Shown here: in pieces, positions 34,461 through 44,036 of the stretch
Layout of the letters: each line of letters begins with the position of its first letter
Numbering within the stretch: position 1 is the first letter of the stretch
NCBI GenBank assembly: GCA_026770575.1
Contig: MU657278.1
Coordinates: 56,521-120,520 of the forward strand
Length of the DNA stretch: 64,000 nt
Source: Pelagophyceae sp. CCMP2097
Taxonomy: Eukaryota; Sar; Pelagophyceae
Reading direction: 5' to 3'
Position numbers and translations under genes: made by a program
Notes under the pieces: generated by a model
What the model saw: only the letters and a program-made list of their open reading frames with translations
What the model was told of the DNA's origin: nothing
Databases searched by the model: none

Positions 34461-37400
34461 TCATCGCCGCGCACCGTCAGCGCCGTCGCCCGCGCCGTAG
34501 TCGTCGTAGTCGTCGTCGTCGTCTGCGTCGTCATCGCCGTACGGGTCGTTCTCGCCAAAGTCGTTCTCGCCAAAGTCGTCGTCGTCGTCGTCGTCGCCCG
34601 CGCCGTCGTCGTTTTCCGAGCCTTTGACATCGTCGGCTGCATCCGCGTCGGCCGCGTCGGCCGGCGGGACGCCGCCGTCGGCCGCCGCCGACACGTCGTC
34701 AACGGCACCGTCGTCGTCGCCCGCTTCGTCAGCGCCGTCGTCGTCGCCCACGGAGGGCGTCTGCGAGATGCGCACGGCGCCGTCTCGAAGGGTGATGGTG
34801 GCGATTTGACATCCTTTTAACTCTTCCATGTCTCGAAGGAAGTCAGCAGCCGTTTTTACGTCCAAATTCGCCACCTTTGACGCCTTCTTCGTCGGCGCTA
34901 GCCTCGAAGCGACTTTTATCTTCACCGCGTCGCCGTGCATGCCCACGGCCGTCGCGCGCCAGGGGGAGACCCAGCCGGACGGGTCGATGCCTATACAATC
35001 GATGAGAAATCTATAGAAAATTCGATGGGAATACCCCTCTGGATATCTACGACGCTTTGAGACAATTCCAGAAGAAGAAAAACTGCAATGCCGCCGTGTC
35101 GGGCCGTTAGAAGGCACCGTTTCAACCTGCCGATGAGAGGCCGGCGAGAGGGGCCGGGATTCTGGGGCCGACGACTATGGAGGCCCTCCAAAGGCGCCGT
35201 CGACGAGGGGCCGGCATGAGGGGCCTTCTCGAGGGGCCGTCTTAAGGCGCCGTTTCGGGGGTCCTTCTCAAGGGGCGATTTCGAAACACCATGCGCCGTC
35301 TCGAGCGGCCGTCTTGAGGCGCCGTTTCGAAGGGCCGCCTCAAGGAGCCCCCTCGAGGGGCCGTCCGAAGACGCCGTTTCGAGGCGCCTATTCGAGGGGC
35401 CTTTTCGAGGGGCCTTTTCGAGTGGCCGTCTCGAAGGACCATCTAAAGGCGCCGTTTCGAGGGGCCCTCTCGAAGGGCCGGCGAGAGGGGCAGTCTCGTA
35501 GGGTCGTCTCGTATGGCCGTCTGATAGAGAGGCCGTTTCGAGGGGCCCTTCGAGAGGCCGGTGAGCAAAGCCTTCTCGGGGGGCCTTCTCGAGGGGCCGT
35601 CTAAAGGCGCCGTTTCGGGGGGCCAACAAGAGGGGCCGTCTCGAGGGGTCGTCTCGAGGAGCGATCAATGGCCCTTGAAAGAGGCCGCGCAAGTGACCCC
35701 CAAACTACGGTCACTTGCCCGGCCTCTTTGGCGGTCACTTGCCCGACCTCGGCGCGGTCACTTGCAAGGCCTCTTTCAAGGGCCCTCGCAAAGCCCCCAC
35801 GCACGGTTCCTTGAAAGAGGCCCGTTTCGGGTCCTTACAGGGCCTCTTCAAGGCTCCTCGCGTCGGGCCTTGACAGCCTCTCGAGAAGGCACCGTCTCGA
35901 CGGCTCCATCTCGACGGCGCCTCGAAAGAACCCCTCGAAAAGAACTGTTGAGACGGCCCTTTGAGACGGCCCCTCATGGAGGCCCGTCGAGAAGATGCGT
36001 CGAGGCGGCGCCTCGGGACGGCGCCTTTAGACGGCCCCTCGAGACGACTCTTCGAGCCGGCCCCTCGAGCCGGCCACTCGAAACGGCGCCGCCTCGACGG
36101 CCTTTTGAAAATGTGGGTCGATAGAGGCCCCGGTTGCCGGACCCTCGAAACGGCACCTCGGGACGGTCCCTGTCGAAAGCCCTTGGAAACGGCGCCTCGG
36201 AGCTTCTCTCCCCCGCGCCGAACCGGCCGACGAAAGGGCGGTCGGCGAACGTTTGCGCATCGGTCGTTCCCCGAAGCTCGGTCCTTTGCAAAGATGTTTG
36301 ACTTTCCGCGATCCTGACGGATCCGACGGCAAGGGCGCCGGTAAGGTTGCAGAAGAGTTCAAACCTAGACGCCCGCTCAATCGAGGCCGGATTCCGCTCG
36401 GGAGCGCGAAAGGTTGATACTCTTGACCCTTTGTAAACTCTCCGAGCCCCGGTCGTATTTTGATTGACCAGATGGTATTTTGATTGACCAGATGGTATTT
36501 TGATGGAGATTCTCATGAAAGAAGAGGTCCGACTCTCACCTCTGCCGGCTCCTGTCCCGCTTCTTTGCAAAAGGGAGACGCACGCTTCCGCCGGGTCGCA
36601 GTCGTCTCGGCAGCCGGCGAGTAGGAGGGTTGTTCCAAAAACCCTAAGGCGCGTCGTCAGGGGCGGGGCGTCATGGCACAGCCCCGTTTGGCGCAGCGCC
36701 GTCGCGCCCGTGGGGCAGATACGGCACAGAGTCTTCCGGGAAATCCGAATTGCGCCTCTGAGGCGTCAATCGCTCAAAACGTTGTTCCAAAACGTTGTTC
36801 CCGAAACGCGCCAAAAAACGAAAGACGCGCGTCGTCGGCAAGGCAGCGCCGTGGCACAGTCCCGTCGGGCGCAGCGCCGCGACCCCGTCGAGCGGATGCG
36901 GCTCGGCAGGGCGTCGCTTCCGGGGTCTCTGGATCCATGTCTTTCAAATGTGCTCAAAAAAAACGGCTCTCAAAACGTCTCTCGAAACATCGTCGCGCAC
37001 CGGGCGCCTCCGGACTGCGTATGTTCTTGCATCAGCCCACCGATCCTACGCCCTGCATCAACCCGCCGATGCTGCGCGTGCGCCTGGCGAGAAGCTGCGG
37101 GACCGCGGGAGCCGCAGTCGTCTTTTGAGAGCCGTTTTTGTTTTAAAAAACAGCGGCGGCTCAAAATGCGGTGTCTGGGACGTACCGCTCCGCGAGGCCG
37201 GCGCAGGAAATCTCCACGCCAAACTCGCGCTCGTGCCTAGAACCGGCGCTGGATTGGGGTGGAATCGGACGAGCCCGGAGACGGGCCCTTTTAACGGTTT
37301 CGGAGACGGTTTGCGGTCCGGAAACGGCCCGTCGACGGTCCCTTGAGACGCCCTATGCCGTTTCAATGTTCCAGGCGGTCACTCTACACGCTTCCAGAGG

Positions 37401-38633
37401 CGGCCCCTTTGAGCGGTCAAGAGATGGCCCGTCGACGGTCCCTAGAGACGCCCTCTCGAGGGCCCTTTTGCCGCTGCACCGGTCCTGCGGCGGCCCCGGA
37501 GGCAGTCTCGGAGACGGCCTCTTGAGGCGGCCTGGGGTTTCCCAAGGTCCCAGGGGCGGCCGCGTAAACAGGCCCTTGAGACGGTCTGTCGAGGGTTCCG
37601 GAGGCGGCCCTCCTGCGGCCGTCGACAGCCCAGAGACGGGCCCGGAAACGGGCCCGGAAAAGGCCTTTTACGGTCCGTCGACGGTCCGGCGAGGGCCCCT
37701 TTCGAGGGCCCCTTTCGAGGGCCCCTTTCGAGGGCCCCTTTCGAGGGCCCCTTTCGAGGGCCGGGGGGAATGCTTCGGAGGCGGTCCCCGAAGCGGGCTT
37801 GGAGACGGCTCGTCGATGGGCCCTTCTGGCCATTTCCAGCTGCAGGTTCCGCCGATGGTCAGTCGACAAAACCCGTCGACAAAACCCGTCGACAAACCCA
37901 GAGACGGTCCAGTTCGACGGTCCCAGCCGCAAAGGTCCCTTTCGACGTCCCTTGAGGCGGCCCGGAGAAGGTCCCTCGGCAGTCGAAAGGGCCCTTTCGA
38001 CGGCCTCTTTCAACGGCCCCTTTCGACGGGCCCGAGGCGGCCCAAATCGAGGGACCCTTTCGAGGGTCCTTTCGACGGCCCCGTTCGACGGCCCATTTCG
38101 AAAGGCCTCTGTTCGATTGCCCTTTCGAGTGTCCCTTTAAAAAGTCGCACTTTTGCCAAAAGAAATTTGCACGGAGAAACGCACTCGATGGCCATCGTTT
38201 GGAGGTGTAGAGACAGAGCTTGAAAGTCCGCGCGCATGCCCGCAAACGCGACGACCACGCGGTCCGTCACCAAACAGACGTGGTTCGTGCGCCTGCCGCT
38301 TCGATTCCGGAAACGCACGGGGCGCTCGAAAAACGGGATAGAAAATGCGCACCCGCGTCGGCCGCGCAGCCCCGCCTCCGCGCCGTCGGCCTGCGCCGAC
38401 GCGACGACGATGCCTGCAAAGGCGGCGTGTTCGCACAAGGCTTTCGGGCGCGGCGGCGCAGGCCGGTGCCTTTGTGTGCTTTTCGGTGTGTTTTGCGACC
38501 CACCGTCTTGCGCGACAATCGCTGCCGCGGTCACTTTGCTCCGTTCGACTGCCTTGAAGGCGAACTCGACTTGCTGGAGGCGGCCCGTCGGGTCAAAAGT
38601 TGTGGGGCTGAACGAGTAGGGACTGCTGCCCAT
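34461..38633 (-). CDS. 20S proteasome alpha subunit (alpha2-like) with acidic tail
   Basis: Proposed exons: 38504-38633, 38353-38413, 38151-38292, 37001-37094, 36540-36643, 34461-34990. Exon 1 encodes MGSSPYSFSPTTFDPTGRLQ and QVEFAFKAVERS, the alpha-subunit N-terminal signature (closest to alpha2). Next come GIVVASAQ, then VTDRVVVAFAGMRADF, then GGLMQEHTQSGGAR, then VFGTTLLLAG, then IDPSGWVSPWRATAVG, all in family order. All junctions use GT-AG with matching phase. Exon 3 holds a 26-bp imperfect tandem duplication (37025-37050 / 37051-37076) that breaks the frame: the summed length is 1061 nt, and 1035 (345 codons) without it. A cryptic 17-nt GT-AG removal would also restore frame. The last 95 or so residues are Asp/Gly-rich, far longer than usual alpha tails. 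Alpha subunits form the outer proteasome ring and have no catalytic Thr. Introns 34991-36539 and 37095-38150 are full of short repeats. Confidence 0.85.
35110..36190. repeat. Short-repeat block in proteasome intron 5
   Basis: CGAGGGGCCGTCTCGAG-type units (35110-35660), then GGCCTCTTGCAAG-type units (35670-35860), then the opposite orientation GAGACGGCCCCTCGAG (35880-36190). Orientation flips within one intron. Confidence 0.85.
37025..37076 (-). repeat. 26-bp tandem duplication inside proteasome exon 3
   Basis: 37025-37050 and 37051-37076 match at 20 of 26 positions. On the coding strand both carry ATCGGYGGGYTGATGCA. One copy supplies GGLMQEHTQ in the correct frame. The extra copy shifts the frame and puts a TGA in the upstream frame. 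Confidence 0.85.
37260..38140. repeat. Short-repeat block in proteasome intron 3
   Basis: GACGGTCCCTTGAGACGGCC-type units, with an almost exact sub-array of GAGGGCCCCTTTC at about 37690-37762 and a short ACAAAACCCGTCG repeat near 37865-37895. Confidence 0.85.
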
Positions 38634-39507
38634 AACGTCGCAACCACAAACGACAACAACAGCCCAAATCGACCGCATCCTCTGCGGAGCCCGGGGCCGG
38701 CCAAGCAGGGCCGGGGGGACGAGAAGAGGGACCGACCCTGAGCGGTGAAAGCTGCCTCGATCACTCGCTGAAATATTAGGCGACTGGCAGTCCACGCTTT
38801 CCTTATATGGAGAATTTCTCCATGGAGAGTTTTCAGTTGAGTCGTCCGTTGGGTCTTCATTATATGGCGCTGTTTGATGCCCGGAGGTCGGCGGGGCGTT
38901 CGGGGCGGCAAGGGGGTGCCAGCGCGCTCTCTTGCGCCGAGATTTGAGACGTTTTTTTATTTTTTCCCCTTGCGCATATTCGAGGACCCCTTGACCTGAG
39001 TAGAAACCTGAGTACGCAAGTCGTCCTCACATCCTGAGTAAACCTGAGTGTGGTTTGACGGGTGGTCAACCCGAGTAATTTCCTGAGTAAGATTACTAGG
39101 GACCGGGCGGTCAACCCGAGTAGATTCCTGAGTAAGATTACTAGGGACCGGGCGGTCAACCCGAGTAGATTCCTGAGTAAGATTACTAGGGACCGGGCGG
39201 GCAACCCGAGTAGATTCCTGAGTAGGTGGTTGGCGGCTCGACTTATGCCTCACGTAGAGGATACCGAAGCGACGAGACTGCATACCGAGCGACTTTTTCC
39301 CATGGGACCAGCCGCGCCAAGTAAAGCGTGAGATGTTGTTTGTTTTCTACTCCATTGCACCGTGAGAGCCCATAATGCCCGCGTCGCGCACAGGGCGCGA
39401 CATGGTTCCTTTTGGCGGCGAGACGACGTCTCAAAAGCGAAGGTCCACGTGCGACATTCAACCAGCGTCTTCCCACGCGCTCTCGCAGGTCTTATCTCTT
39501 TCATGGA

Positions 39508-39682
39508 ATGTCCCCCCGTAGGCGGATGACCAAAGCCTTCGACAAGTTGGTGTCAAGGGCCGAGTTCCGGCACGTGATGGAGGTGGGCGCGCAGGAAGCT
39601 CTGAGGTGCGTAGCTCCATCAATGCTCCGAATGGCTGCTCGTGATGAGGCCGGTGCTACAGGATGGGCTTTGAGCACGACGC

Positions 39683-39713
<31 letters not shown>

Positions 39714-40245
39714 GCTGCCCCGTCGCCGCGGGATGACCGCGACGACGTCGACGCGGATTTAGATGACGAGGAGGCGCGGATCGTCCAGATCGCGGAGACG
39801 ATCATGCGACGAGGAGGGTCGACCGCGATAGATCCAAAGGACTCGGCGCAACTCGTCGAAATGATGTTGAGCCCCACGTCCTATACTGCGTCGGCGATTA
39901 CGATCGGGCAATGCAGATCGTCCAGAAACAGCCCATGTTCACTTAGCCGCCCATGGCCGCAAGGGGGCGCTGTGGGAAACACTGAATGTGATGCAGAGGC
40001 GGTGCGATGCAGATGGAGAGGAGTTGCTGAACGTCACTGCCCGCCCTCATAGGTTCGGCACCCACACATACGCGGCGTCTTTAGTCCGGAAGAACCCGAC
40101 AATTGAAGTCTTCGCGGCGGCGCTCGAGCAAGCGCACGACGAAGGGACGATCACCCCGGGGCTTCTCGCGCGAGGCCAGGGCGTGCTGAAGCACATGGCG
40201 GAGGGCACGCTCGTCGACGCACTGCGGCAACGCCTCTTCGACTGA
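39508..40245 (+). CDS. Hypothetical protein inside inverted-repeat element
   Basis: Exon 1 (39508-39605) encodes MSPRRRMTKAFDKLVSRAEF and ends at CTGAG|GTGCGT. A 56-nt intron ends at GCTACAG, and exon 2 starts at 39662 with matching phase (EALR/MGFEHD), followed by an Ala run and an acidic stretch. A C-terminal part in another frame (from about 39900 to TGA 40245) reads HVHLAAHGRKGALWETLNVM and, further on, NPTIEVFAAALEQAHDEGT, a compact helical region. A second intron or a frameshift between 39855 and 39920 is required. No family recognised. It could be an element-borne gene or a host gene caught between inverted repeats. Confidence 0.45.
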
Positions 40246-40566
40246 GCGCGCGGAGTAGGCTGCCGCCAGCCACACAGGCCGCACCGATAAATCCACTCTC
40301 GCTCCATTGCCGGCCGTGCTGAAACTCTTGCTTCGACTAAGAAAGACCATTCAACCCACTCGGTTGCCTCTGGGAAGTCGCTCGGTATGCAGTCTCGTCG
40401 CTTCGGTATCCTCTACGTGAGGCATAAGTCGAGCCGCCAACCACCTACTCAGGAATCTACTCGGGTTGCCCGCCCGGTCCCTAGTAATCTTACTCAGGAA
40501 TCTACTCGGGTTGACCGCCCGGTCCCTAGTAATCTTACTCAGGAAATTACTCGGGTTGACCACCCG

Positions 40567-40606
40567 NNNNNNNNNNNNNNNNNNNNNNNNNNNNNNNNNN
40601 NNNNNN
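40567..40606. other. Assembly gap (40 N)
   Basis: Run of N inside the tandem-repeat part of the right inverted arm. Repeat-copy number there is therefore unknown. Confidence 1.
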
Positions 40607-40737
40607 AACGCCCCGCCGACCTCCGGGCATCAAACAGCGCCATATAATGAAGACCCAACGGACGACTCAACTGAAAACTCTCCATGGAGAAATTCTCCAT
40701 ACAATTGTATAAGGAAAGCGGGCAGTCCACCAGTCTC

Positions 40738-40779
40738 ATCGCGGCATCATGCCGTTCCCATTTCCGCAAGGGAACCTTA
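40738..40779 (+). repeat. Direct repeat flanking copia ORF, left
   Basis: CATCGCGGCATCATGCCGTT followed by CCATTTCCGCAAGGGAACC. It matches 42310-42352 and, reversed and diverged, 44586-44640. It is probably an LTR or LTR-adjacent fragment. Confidence 0.7.
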
Positions 40780-40792
40780 GGCCGGCCCGCAC

Positions 40793-42181
40793 GTGGCGAC
40801 GCACTCCAGTCCGTCCCCAGGCTACACGGCCGTCAAGTTCATGGCGGCGCACGCGGCGCACTACGGCAACGTTCTCCTCGCCGACGACACCATCGACGCC
40901 TACCTCAAAGGTGCGCCGCGCGACGAACCTTTCTACGCGTTCTTTCCGGCCAACTGGCGGCTCTACATGCTCGCCGAGTTTGGCAACGACCAAGCGCAGT
41001 GGCCGTACGACCCCGCGACGCACGTCTGCTGCATCACGGGCAACATCCCCGGCGCCCTCGACGCCGGCGCCATCTGGCGCGACGCGATCCACCCCGTCAT
41101 CACGTCCCTCGGCTTCGTCGTCACACCGCTGAGCGAAGCCCTCTACGTCCGCCGCGAGCCCGATGGCACCACGTCTGGACTCATGCTTTGGACGGACGAC
41201 GCCATCGTCTCGGCCACCGCGGCGCGCGCGGCCGAGATCACGGGCGCCATCAGCGCGCGTTTCGCCTCCAAGGGATGCCGCATCCTCGGCTCCGAGGACG
41301 CCGACATGCTCGCGCTCGACATCGTCGCAAATCCCGACGGCGGGTATTCCATCCACATGACGACCTACGAGACCGCCCTCGTGGCCAAGCTTGGCTACAA
41401 AGACGCGACGGCCGCGAAGACGCCTCTGCCCGCTTTATGGCACGCCGACTCAACCGAGGACCCCGAGGCCTCGCACGGCGCTCCGGCGCACAAGTTCCAC
41501 GACCCCCGCGTCGCCATCGGCCTGCTCACCTTCAACGCCTACATCCTGCGCGCCGACTACTCCTTCGCCCTCTCTTCGCTCTCGGGCGCCATTGGAGTAT
41601 GGGCGGAGAAGCACGACCGCGCGTTAGGTCGCACCATCCGCTACCTCAAAGGGCGCATCGGCGCGAAGATCACCTGGCCCGGCAAGTTCCCGATCACGAC
41701 CAAGGCCTACGTCGACGCCAGCTTCGGCAACGAGCTCTTCGACGGCAACTCTACGGCTCGGGCGCGCTCGCGCATCGCCGGCGTGCTCTACCTGGGACCG
41801 ACCCCGATCTGGTACTTTACGGCGCGCACCAAGACGACGCCTTTGTCCACGGCAGAGGCGGAGCTCCTCGCGTTGGTCCGCCTCCTGCGCGGCCTCGTCA
41901 TCCTACGTGTAACCATCATGATGCTCTTCGGCATAAAGGACTTGCCGCCGACATACGTCTACGAGGACAACATGGCCGTGGTGCAGATGCTCCGCAAGCG
42001 AGTCATTTCAGGCCGCTCACGCCACGTCCGCGTCGCCATCGGCTACGTCCTAGACGTCCTCGACGCGGGCCACGCCATCGTCTCCTTCGTCGGCACCAAG
42101 GACCAACTCGCCAACGGCCTCACCAAGGCGGAAACAAAGGACGAACACGCGCGCACGTTCGCCGCGTTCTTCTCGGAGTAG
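40793..42181 (+). CDS. Ty1/copia retrotransposon RT and RNase H, 5'-truncated
   Basis: A 462-codon uninterrupted frame. It opens at the start of the copia RT domain (AVKFMAAHAAHYGN, then DDTIDAYLKG, the family V/T-AYLHG motif), with the catalytic block LMLWTDDAIV near 41180-41210 where copia elements normally have Y/F-V-D-D. RNase H motifs follow: AYVDASFG, then TKTTPLSTAEAELLAL, then YVYEDNMAVVQM, and the end matches the family DQLANGLTK. Gag, protease and integrase are absent. The left boundary falls 18 bp after the inverted-repeat element. A 42-bp sequence (40738-40779) recurs at 42310-42352, flanking the ORF. The frame may be read as a truncated gene but is not autonomous. Confidence 0.9.
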   Translation: MATHSSPSPGYTAVKFMAAHAAHYGNVLLADDTIDAYLKGAPRDEPFYAFFPANWRLYMLAEFGNDQAQWPYDPATHVCCITGNIPGALDAGAIWRDAIHPVITSLGFVVTPLSEALYVRREPDGTTSGLMLWTDDAIVSATAARAAEITGAISARFASKGCRILGSEDADMLALDIVANPDGGYSIHMTTYETALVAKLGYKDATAAKTPLPALWHADSTEDPEASHGAPAHKFHDPRVAIGLLTFNAYILRADYSFALSSLSGAIGVWAEKHDRALGRTIRYLKGRIGAKITWPGKFPITTKAYVDASFGNELFDGNSTARARSRIAGVLYLGPTPIWYFTARTKTTPLSTAEAELLALVRLLRGLVILRVTIMMLFGIKDLPPTYVYEDNMAVVQMLRKRVISGRSRHVRVAIGYVLDVLDAGHAIVSFVGTKDQLANGLTKAETKDEHARTFAAFFSE

Positions 42182-42309
42182 GTCTGCGGCGATGTCTCGC
42201 CGCCCTTCAAGCTCTAGTTCTCTCTTTTTCTTAACGTCAAAGAAGGGACTCTACTTCCTCTCGTGCCTCCCGTTCATCTTCATTTCGCTCCGGCACGCGA
42301 GTGGGGGAG

Positions 42310-42500
42310 CATCGCGGCATCATGCCGTTCACATTCCCGCCGAGGGAACCTTAACCCTTGCGGAAAATTCCATCCGGAAGATTCCATCCCCGAAGGAATC
42401 CTAACCCTCACAAATCCGTGAACCTAACCCCCAAATACATCACACAGTTCTAACTCTGACTGTGGGCACTACGAGTCTGACGAGCAGTCGAAATGAGATC
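42310..42500 (+). repeat. Direct repeat / probable LTR remnant, right
   Basis: Begins with the same 42-bp sequence as 40738-40779. It continues through CTAACCCTCACAAATCC and CACAGTTCTAACTCTGACTG to GTGGGCACTA. A reversed relative of the whole stretch lies at 44515-44650, which supports a long-terminal-repeat family. Confidence 0.6.
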
Positions 42501-42592
42501 ACGTCGTCAACTAAAATTCACTTCGAAAATATTTGGACGAATGGCATATCAACCGGAAGGTGTTCCCCTTGAGCACCTGCGAGTTCCCTTGG

Positions 42593-42790
42593 CGTTGACC
42601 TGGGGGTGAAAAACCACTTAATCCAAGGTAGCAGTCGAGACTGCGCATCGAGGAGCGGCTGTTGACATGAAAATATGACACCATCTGCCACTGACGTATG
42701 CCCTGGCAAAAGGGATTTCCGGTCCCAGTGCCAGGAGCCAGTTGAGAAAAGTGTATATAAACATATCCCATTCTTATTGAGTTTTTTTGG
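42593..42790 (+). repeat. Dispersed repeat (GGAGCGGCTGTTGACATG), copy A
   Basis: About 195 bp: AAAACCACTT, AGCAGTCGAGACTG, GGAGCGGCTGTTGACATGAA, GGTCCCAGTGCCAGGAGCCA, GTGTATATAAACA. Homologous to 55180-55375 (+) and, truncated, to 63845-63985 (-). TATATAAA near the right end would suit a promoter of an element. Confidence 0.85.
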
Positions 42791-42955
42791 TACCCAGACC
42801 CGGATTTGAATCGGCGTACATTAATTTCACTTGCTAACATTTTCCCAAATTTTATTTTATACGCAAAGCCGAGCTCGAACCTTTTTTTTGGCGTTGACCT
42901 GGGGGGGAGCTTACGCGACGCGTGTCGTGGACGAGCAGGGCGCGGACGAGCAGAG
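42790..42955. repeat. tRNA-like box plus dispersed GACGAGCAG repeat
   Basis: 42788-42840 (ACCCAGACCCGGATTTGAAT...) matches 55848-55890; the reverse strand carries a B-box-like TTCAAATCCGGGTCTGGGTA. It is followed by the 45-bp repeat at 42911-42955, also present at 55898-55940 and 861-907. Confidence 0.7.
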
Positions 42956-42973
42956 TCATTTTTCTTTTCTTTC

Positions 42974-43017
42974 GTTGACCTGGGGGGGGGGGGGGGGGCG
43001 GCCCCCTCAGGTCAACC
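42974..43017. repeat. Poly-G hairpin
   Basis: GTTGACCTG plus a run of 17 G, then CGGCCCCC and the reverse complement CAGGTCAAC. The sequence can form a hairpin on one strand or a G-quadruplex on the other. The same GTTGACCTGGGGG start occurs at 42594 and 42891. Confidence 0.8.
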
Positions 43018-43019
43018 TT

Positions 43020-43390
43020 TCAGGATCTCGCAGGTGCTTGAGGGGAAGGCACCTCGGACGCCGCCTCGTTTGTGGCCACGTCGGTGCTCGCGTCGACGTG
43101 GTCGGCAAGCTCCGTTTGCTGCACAAGCACGGCAGCGCGTGGCGCGCCTTCTTTGGCTTGTTCCACGACGAACACCTTCCGGTCGATATATAACGTTCGC
43201 TAAAAAGTATCGTCCTTTTGGTCGATAACTTGGATTTGATTGAAAAAGTAATAAAAACTCAATTAAAGCACCAGACTCTGGTCCAGAGGCGCCTTCAAGG
43301 GCTTTTAAAAAAACCTTAACGTTTTTGTGGGCTGATCTAATTTCGACTGTGAGGTTGAAAGCGCAGCCGAAGAACTCCACTCGCGCGCCA
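43020..43390. other. No gene recognised
   Basis: A GC-rich half (43020-43190) and an AT-rich half with poly-A/T runs. Frames show no recognised motif. Confidence 0.4.
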
Positions 43391-43392
43391 CG

Positions 43393-43471
43393 ATGGACGA
43401 CCCGCCGGCCGCCGCGCGCAAGCCCTGCTGCGTCTGCGACGCGCCGGGCGGCAAGCACTACACCAAGTGCA
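43393..43471 (+). CDS. Possible first exon, Cys-rich (zinc-finger HIT-like?)
   Basis: ATG 43393 begins MDDPPAAARKPCCVCDAPGG, followed by K-H-Y-T-K-C. A donor at CACCAA|GTGCAAAT would end the exon just before the fold-back element. C-x2-C-x8-K-Y-like spacing resembles the start of a HIT zinc finger, and KPCCVC also recalls COX17, so the family is open. No following exon was identified. Confidence 0.3.
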
Positions 43472-43495
43472 AATCGTCGAAACAGGAATCTTTCG

Positions 43496-43705
43496 CGAAT
43501 TACACTAAGAGAAGCGTTTTCGGACTCGCCGCTTCAGCACGCGTCGAATGCGCTAAATGGCGTCTCAAATTTCAAAACGGTCAATTTTGCTCCTGCCAGA
43601 GGTAAACAACAACAAAATGATCGTTTTGACTTTTAAGACGCCGCTTAGCACATTCGACGCGAGTTGAAGCGGCGAGTCCGAAAACGCTTCTCTTAGTGTA
43701 ATTCG
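43496..43705. mobile_element. Fold-back element, about 94-bp arms
   Basis: Arms 43496-43589 and 43613-43705 are near-perfect reverse complements (CGAATTACACTAAGAGAAGC, GTTTTCGGACTCGCCGCTTC ...) around a 23-nt spacer. Both strands therefore encode the same peptide fragment, which is not a gene. It may be a MITE-like insertion. Confidence 0.85.
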
Positions 43706-43925
43706 TAAATGTTGCATTTTCAGCGATTCTATTCGGCGACATGGCCTGCCCGGGGAGCCATACAGTGCTTAGATAGTGGTAGGCTCCCGGCCCCTGCGTG
43801 GCCCTATACGCCAATTGTTTGGTTGCCAACGCAGGAATCAGTTCACGTAAGTCACGCTTAAGCGATGCGGTCCTGACTTTGATGATGGGGTTGCGCGAAA
43901 AAATATGACTTTGGAGCATGATATC

Positions 43926-44036
43926 TTTTGACTGCAAGTGTGCCCGTTGTCAAGGATATCGGGGATCGCGAGAGGAGGCTGGGCCCTACCTCGATCCGTC
44001 GCCCGTGACAACGGGCACCCTAGGGTGCAGTCAAAA
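43926..44036. mobile_element. Short inverted-repeat element
   Basis: Left TTTTGACTGCAAGTGTGCCC with GTTGTCA and right (reverse complement) TTTTGACTGCACCCTAGGGT with GCCCGTTGTCA pair over about 28 bp. The right-end sequence ATCCGTCGCCCGTGACAACG occurs again at 44155-44175, which suggests a second end nearby. Confidence 0.75.

What the first reader, a model, noticed from the sequence alone, without database searches (positions are those of the whole stretch)
38795..40720. Long inverted-repeat unit carrying an unknown spliced gene, inserted beside a proteasome promoter
Seen: arms of about 500 and 340 bp in inverted orientation, each with internal 45-bp tandem repeats, enclosing a 1.1-kb core with a phase-consistent exon pair and no transposase motif. 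Inference: either a non-autonomous DNA transposon that carries cargo, or a palindromic gene unit. Its arm starts 160 bp from the proteasome start codon, so it could supply or disturb that promoter. This is the best candidate in the window for something not yet described.
Basis: partly seen in the sequence, partly recalled or inferred. Interest (0 to 1): 0.75.

Follow-up and report, generated by a model that had tools for sequence, protein, structure and literature searches.

The report
Foldback Mutator transposon carrying gene fragment
A jumping DNA element of the Mutator/foldback kind, with long mirror-image ends, landed just upstream of a proteasome gene in a microbial eukaryote and carries a decayed piece of a gene that is still transcribed elsewhere; it is a nice new example of a known kind of transposon.

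Summary
Window 38795-40720 is a complete terminal-inverted-repeat (TIR) transposon with CGCTTTCCTTATA tips and a perfect 9-bp target-site duplication, GGCAGTCCA. It belongs to a family found at about 35 places in the assembly (hand count). A second copy (C626) has the same arm-core-arm order and its own 9-bp duplication, which argues against misassembly. The arms look unequal mainly because 40 N stand in the right one. They carry 45-bp tandem units rich in a YGAGTA motif that recurs in diverged subfamilies.

A relative on contig C145 holds the only Mutator-type (MULE) transposase that my searches found; its best database relative (E=4.9e-27) carries Pfam MULE. That copy has a broken reading frame and no left arm was found. 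The window unit is thus a non-autonomous MULE/foldback element, like Tm1 and Muta1.

Its "unknown spliced gene" is a decayed fragment of a gene whose paralogue lies on C373, with no inverted arms in the 4.4 kb read. A transcript-derived protein (P0003) matches C373 and has its intron exactly where the window has one (39606-39661). I read this as capture (Pack-MULE-like); an element gene domesticated at C373 is not excluded. Effects on the proteasome promoter are untested.

The parts
38786..38794 (.). left 9-bp target-site duplication GGCAGTCCA
   Evidence: 9/9 match to the right copy; 72 cross-pairings of flanks average 2.4 (maximum 8)
38795..39295 (+). left terminal inverted repeat (arm)
39059..39224 (+). 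45-bp tandem repeats in the left arm, with YGAGTA motifs
   Evidence: 11 motifs in the left arm against a mean of 0.45 in mononucleotide shuffles
39526..39605 (+). exon 1 of the gene remnant (MTKAFDKLVSRAEFRHVMEVGAQEALR)
   Evidence: pN/pS 0.25 to C373 over 21 codons, no wrong-frame control for this block
39606..39661 (+). intron, GTGCGT...TACAG, same place in C84, C145, C331 and (by transcript-derived protein) C373
39662..39890 (+). start of exon 2 (MGFEHDAAAA...); further on the frame departs from that of the paralogue
40054..40242 (+). remnant of the 3' end of the same gene in another frame; 40054-40230 is 41% identical to P0003 residues 240-298
   Evidence: E 1.4e-7 in the local set of loci
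40375..40720 (-). right terminal inverted repeat (arm), with gap
40446..40566 (-). 45-bp tandem repeats in the right arm
40567..40606 (.). assembly gap of 40 N, shorter than the left-arm stretch it stands for (158-203 bp)
40721..40729 (.). right 9-bp target-site duplication GGCAGTCCA

Best explanation
The unit is a non-autonomous Mutator-superfamily (MULE) transposon with foldback-type arms. It moved as one piece, by a MULE transposase supplied in trans that recognises the tips and probably the arrayed YGAGTA motifs in the arms, and made a 9-bp staggered cut about 160 bp upstream of a proteasome alpha-subunit gene. Its core holds decayed 3' exons, with an intron retained, of a gene related to the transcribed C373 gene; most likely this is a Pack-MULE-like capture at the DNA level that was carried along as the family split into subfamilies. 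Shown: the element ends, the target-site duplication, the family, a MULE-like transposase in a related member, the shared intron. Inferred: trans-mobilisation, motif function, direction of capture.
For: Duplication: 9/9 at the window, L009, L010, L016, L018 and L025; 8/9 in L026; 7/9 in L030; 1/9 in L020 (7/9 if shifted one base). Those nine were picked partly on duplication match; a pick blind to it over 43 loci gave 11 candidate pairs, 6 with at least 8/9. Family: about 35 places by hand count, window included, C422 and C18 (GCG run only) dropped. Match to L009: 99.1% over 1103 bp, unit positions 670-1772, that is most of the core and the inner right arm. YGAGTA: 11 and 6 in the two arms, 0 in the core; above every mononucleotide shuffle in 7 of 8 other elements or arms tested, 0 in the 207-bp L018. 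Transposase: C145 is collinear with the C84 element on both sides of a 6.3-kb stretch that only C145 has, the two matches overlapping by 3 bp, with no family tip at 2 mismatches or fewer within 150 bp of either junction. That stretch holds a 470-aa frame with MULE (E 0.033) and SWIM (E 0.0065) matches in the expected order, a database relative P0001 at E=4.9e-27 with PF10551 and PF00872, and FDTKRS / TDSD / RIEAVHS and CSC..CRH motifs (motif reading recalled). No other was found by two protein searches. Gene remnant: P0003 matches C373 exon by exon and the window at two stretches.
Against: The window element has no transposase. PF10551 finds nothing in the assembly at E<=0.001; the C145 frame is below both Pfam cut-offs and also has a chance-like AmpE match of similar E (0.031). 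The C145 transposase changes frame between the first and second acidic residues, and no left arm of C145 was found in C145:37700-78900, so no whole autonomous element is seen. L020 lacks an in-place duplication. Direction of capture is not shown.
Confidence: 0.9

Rival explanations
1. The core gene belongs to the MULE itself, as an accessory gene or transposase tail (as mudrB accompanies mudrA), and the C373 gene is a domesticated descendant of it.
For: The core occurs in two clear MULE subfamilies (window/L009 and C84/C145), and part of it in C331, which looks like a third: weak arm similarity (66%), nine YGAGTA sites at 3974-4246 of L060, a poor tip and then N. In C145 it follows the transposase on the same strand with more upstream exons. 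pN/pS between window and C84 or C145 is 0.52-0.72 in the read frames against 0.89-1.69 in wrong frames.
Against: C373 has no inverted arms and 4 scattered motifs in the 4.4 kb read and an open, transcript-supported gene. Element copies have frame breaks. No homologue beyond P0003 among 7997 scored candidates to root the split.
Confidence: 0.3
2. A palindromic gene unit kept for host function beside the proteasome, for example an alternative promoter.
For: It lies about 160 bp from the start codon; TIRs of MULEs can contain promoters (PMC6446971, passage).
Against: Arm sequence at 33 other places (hand count); copies without this core (L010, L018); near-identical copy at another site; core frame broken.
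Confidence: 0.05
3. A misassembly of one inverted arm.
For: A gap of 40 N in the right arm.
Against: Two target-site copies, and a second locus with the same arm-core-arm order and its own duplication.
Confidence: 0.02
4. A foldback element of another superfamily such as P/Galileo.
For: Galileo also has long internally repetitive TIRs (PMC3573991, search listing only).
Against: 9-bp duplication; MULE-like transposase in a family member.
Confidence: 0.03

Closest known systems
Tm1, Mutator/Foldback family of Meloidogyne (PMC3169594; abstract and passages)
   Same: composite TIRs of variable length with tandem repeats, mostly 9-bp duplications, members carrying a gene (Cg-1), Mutator-type transposase in some members
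   Different: nematode; about 14-bp repeat units, not 45-bp; transposase resembles the Phantom subclass; no sequence relation tested
Muta1 and other MULEs of Aedes aegypti (PMC5225508; passages)
   Same: TIRs over 100 bp with subterminal tandem repeats, 8-9-bp duplications, many non-autonomous derivatives with varied cores; its authors class Muta1 as a type-2 foldback element
   Different: 145-bp TIR with 12-bp repeats, active transposase; insect
Pack-MULEs of plants (recalled; described in passages of PMC5225508 and PMC6446971)
   Same: non-autonomous MULE carrying a piece of a cellular gene
   Different: same fragment in diverged subfamilies; donor direction not proven; microbial eukaryote. 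A listing hit on Ectocarpus (PMC12477816, passage) uses the term only by analogy, for giant families without transposase
MULE-Cc of red algae, groups 36 and 38 (PMC6446971, table passage)
   Same: TIRs of 192 and 500 bp with 'various inserts, potentially host derived' (group 36); TIRs of 244 and 640 bp and a 9-bp duplication (group 38); SWIM in both
   Different: no tandem-motif arms mentioned in the passage; relationship of transposases not tested

Membership tests
MULE (Mutator superfamily) | 8-11-bp, mostly 9-bp, target-site duplication | tested here: met
   window 9/9; blind pick 6 of 11 pairs at least 8/9
MULE (Mutator superfamily) | long TIRs, often over 100 bp | tested here: met
MULE (Mutator superfamily) | MULE-type DDE transposase in the family | tested here: met
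   in the related C145 member, not in the window; frame broken there
MULE (Mutator superfamily) | Pfam MULE domain above cut-off in this genome | tested here: not met
   0 of 1 genomes; 15 bits against 27.6. The homologue P0001 carries PF10551
Foldback elements | long composite TIRs with internal tandem repeats | tested here: met
Pack-MULE | non-autonomous, contains a cellular gene fragment | tested here: inconclusive
   homology and intron shared with C373; direction of transfer not shown
P/Galileo foldback | 7-8-bp duplication (recalled) | tested here: not met
   in the nine copies the match stands out at length 9 and not at 7 or 8
MULE (Mutator superfamily) | transposase binds the arms and moves the element | not testable with these tools
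   needs an excision or binding assay

The most novel reading that the evidence does not exclude
A MULE/foldback lineage of a marine microbial eukaryote acquired a gene early, next to or fused with its transposase, kept it through its split into two or three subfamilies under some protein-level constraint, and uses its product in transposition or silencing evasion, so that element and host now carry divergent versions of the same protein.
Probability: 0.2. Interest if true: 0.5.

Novelty: new member of a known kind. Interest (0 to 1): 0.3.

Why it matters
It adds a foldback-type MULE with arrayed arm motifs and a fragment of a cellular gene in a genome for which my six literature searches listed no description. 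The retained intron, the transcribed paralogue and the near-identical second copy make gene capture by a MULE outside land plants testable here. The insertion near a proteasome promoter gives a concrete place to ask whether MULE arms alter expression.

Tried and rejected
Rfam scan of 36000-44000: 0 matches at gathering scores. Pfam on three frames of the core: only a CbiD match in one (E 0.16), judged chance. Search of 5.8 billion proteins with window:39871-40242: 54 candidates, 0 at E<=0.01. Pfam on the C373 join: only Utp14 (E 0.0043, below cut-off) and TFIIF_alpha (0.18), both in the acidic low-complexity part, rejected. PF10551 in the own genome: no match. A longer member of the window's own subfamily was sought with the extra part of L009: 6 matches, C515 (91%) nearest after itself; no transposase match in L011, which holds 1101 N, and the further C515 stretch (L073) reads N throughout, so nothing was tested there. 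C422 and C18 matched only the GCG run and were dropped. Two further tip pairs with 6/9 duplication (L048, L050) were left out of the nine. C133 and C305 hold weak relatives of the last exon and could not be read. The organism was not identified; P0003 is listed from JGI and MMETSP sources, the latter recalled to be a transcriptome project.

Literature: search listings. Of Tm1 I saw the abstract, outline and passages; of Muta1, Tetris, the MULE review and the Ectocarpus paper, passages only; PMC3573991 in the listing only. Drosophila FB and Arabidopsis FARE are recalled or seen as references. I did not see this family described in those listings; no wider claim is made.

Full report
What is there. 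The window lies in contig C115 of an unnamed 66-Mb assembly in 638 contigs; the proteasome gene and spliced genes make it eukaryotic (inference). Between 38795 and 40720 there is a unit whose two ends read CGCTTTCCTTATA inwards. The ends belong to inverted arms, 38795-39295 and 40375-40720, whose aligned letters are identical; they differ by an 8-bp insertion near the right tip, the N gap and one tandem unit. Both arms contain 45-bp tandem repeats. The right arm is shorter mainly because a run of 40 N stands where the left arm has 158-203 bp.

It is a transposon. Immediately outside the tips stands the same 9-mer, GGCAGTCCA, on both sides. In nine copies with both tips recognised, the 9-mer matches 9,9,9,9,9,1,9,8,7; at other lengths from 5 to 12 the matches are lower, the highest being 7 of 10 in L020 and 6 of 8 in two copies with GC-rich flanks. 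The 72 cross-pairings of flanks average 2.4 with a maximum of 8. Because those nine were chosen partly on duplication match, and two pairs with 6/9 were left out, I repeated the choice without it over 43 loci: 11 candidate pairs, 6 with at least 8/9 and 5 with 9/9. Four of the five failures have tips that depart in two or three places from the consensus, but so do two of the successes (L025, L044); the fifth failure, L020, has perfect tips. That filter also missed L016, L030 and the true ends of L018.

It has a family. A search of the assembly with the unit gave 125 matches in about 35 separate places by my hand count, window included, with two GCG-only places dropped and C331 matched by its core only; only 40 of 55 candidates were scored, so counts are lower bounds. 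The closest, on C626 (L009, 2681 bp), shares 1103 bp (most of the core and the inner right arm) at 99.1% and both arms, which argues for recent movement and against misassembly. The other copies delimited run from 207 bp (L018) to 3467 bp (L016). YGAGTA motifs are packed into the arms (11 left, 6 right, 0 in the core; mononucleotide-shuffle means 0.45, 0.14, 0.75) and also into arms of a subfamily only about 77% identical; the 207-bp L018 has none. Arrayed motifs of this sort are a plausible transposase-binding array; that is inference.

Which superfamily. C84 (L016) and C145 are collinear relatives, except that C145 has an extra 6.3 kb where the two C84 matches overlap by 3 bp. No tip of this family with two mismatches or fewer lies within 150 bp of either junction. 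So C84 looks like a deletion derivative, though an insertion of another kind in C145 is not excluded. The extra stretch encodes a 470-aa frame (L047:7079-8488). Pfam gives SWIM (E 0.0065) and the second half of MULE (E 0.033), both below cut-off but in the expected order, and an AmpE match of similar weakness. The protein search gives two relatives at E<=0.01 among 7997 scored candidates, the best at E 4.9e-27 carrying PF10551 and PF00872. By eye the frame has TDSD, RIEAVHS and CSC...CRH, and an upstream FDTKRS in another frame, so this copy's transposase is interrupted. It is the only one found by two protein searches of the assembly; the PF10551 profile itself finds none. No left arm of the C145 element was found in C145:37700-78900.

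What the core is. A paralogue on C373 (L054) has no inverted arms and only four scattered motifs in the 4.4 kb read; the rest of its 32-kb contig was not read. A transcript-derived protein, P0003 (303 aa, JGI and MMETSP), matches C373 exon by exon and joins ...GAQEALR to LAFEHDAA, exactly where the window has its intron. The window keeps exon 1 (39526-39605), part of exon 2 (from 39662) and the 3' end (to 40242), but not in one frame. Replacement-to-silent ratios in the read frames are 0.52-0.72 between the window and C84 or C145, against 0.89-1.69 in wrong frames of the same blocks. To C373 the window has 0.25 in exon 1 (no wrong-frame control) and 0.71 in the last block, where the wrong frames give 0.79 and 1.36; C373 against C145 in the last block gives 0.93, no better than its wrong frames (0.80, 0.85). 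Against C331, exon 1 gives 0.76 (wrong frames 1.21, 2.14) and exon 2 gives no signal (0.87-0.93 in all frames). So constraint is weak and partly old.

How it most likely works. A MULE transposase made by another copy would bind the arms, cut the element out and insert it with a 9-bp stagger; the window unit can only ride along. The core is cargo: a fragment of a cellular gene taken up as DNA with an intron. The alternative, an element gene domesticated at C373, is kept at 0.3 because the same core sits in two clear subfamilies and probably a third (C331) and, in C145, downstream of the transposase on the same strand.

Comparison with print. Tm1 (PMC3169594: abstract and passages) combines foldback arms, 9-bp duplications, a carried gene and a Mutator-type transposase. 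Muta1 (PMC5225508: passages) has long TIRs with subterminal tandem repeats, and its authors class it as a type-2 foldback element. [quoted passage not shown] The window unit fits this kind; what it adds is the host and the retained gene fragment. I rate it a new member of a known kind.

Changes after re-checking: C331 is now called a probable, not a sure, third subfamily; the stretch fetched turned out to read N only; the wrong-frame range and the C373-C145 result against constraint are now given.

Noticed in passing
window 40781-42181 (+): A 466-aa open frame like a Ty1/copia polymerase (RVT_2 E 9.2e-5, below cut-off) directly right of the element, between two 94%-identical 31-bp repeats at 40737-40767 and 42310-42340.
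   Followed up: partly
window 37690-37762, 37862-37896 and 37990-38128: 13-bp tandem repeats (CGAGGGCCCCTTT and others) downstream of the proteasome start codon on its coding side.
   Followed up: no
L019 1831-2413 (C145), and L014 near 406: A second small TIR element with ends CAAGGGGGGGTCAACATGA, flanked by TA on both sides, nested in the C145 core; the same end abuts a tip of this family in L014.
   Followed up: partly
L016 1092-2277 and 3381-4558: In the C84 element the arms (about 1186 bp) include part of the gene core in both orientations, so arms in this family may lengthen by copying the core.
   Followed up: partly
G000 C133:21423-21629 and C305:26757-26963: Two further places encode weak relatives (34-35%) of the last exon of the C373 gene.
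   Followed up: no
L009 2821-3294: Lys/Ala-rich open frame in the second copy, absent from the window element; C515 holds a 91% DNA relative of this region.
   Followed up: partly
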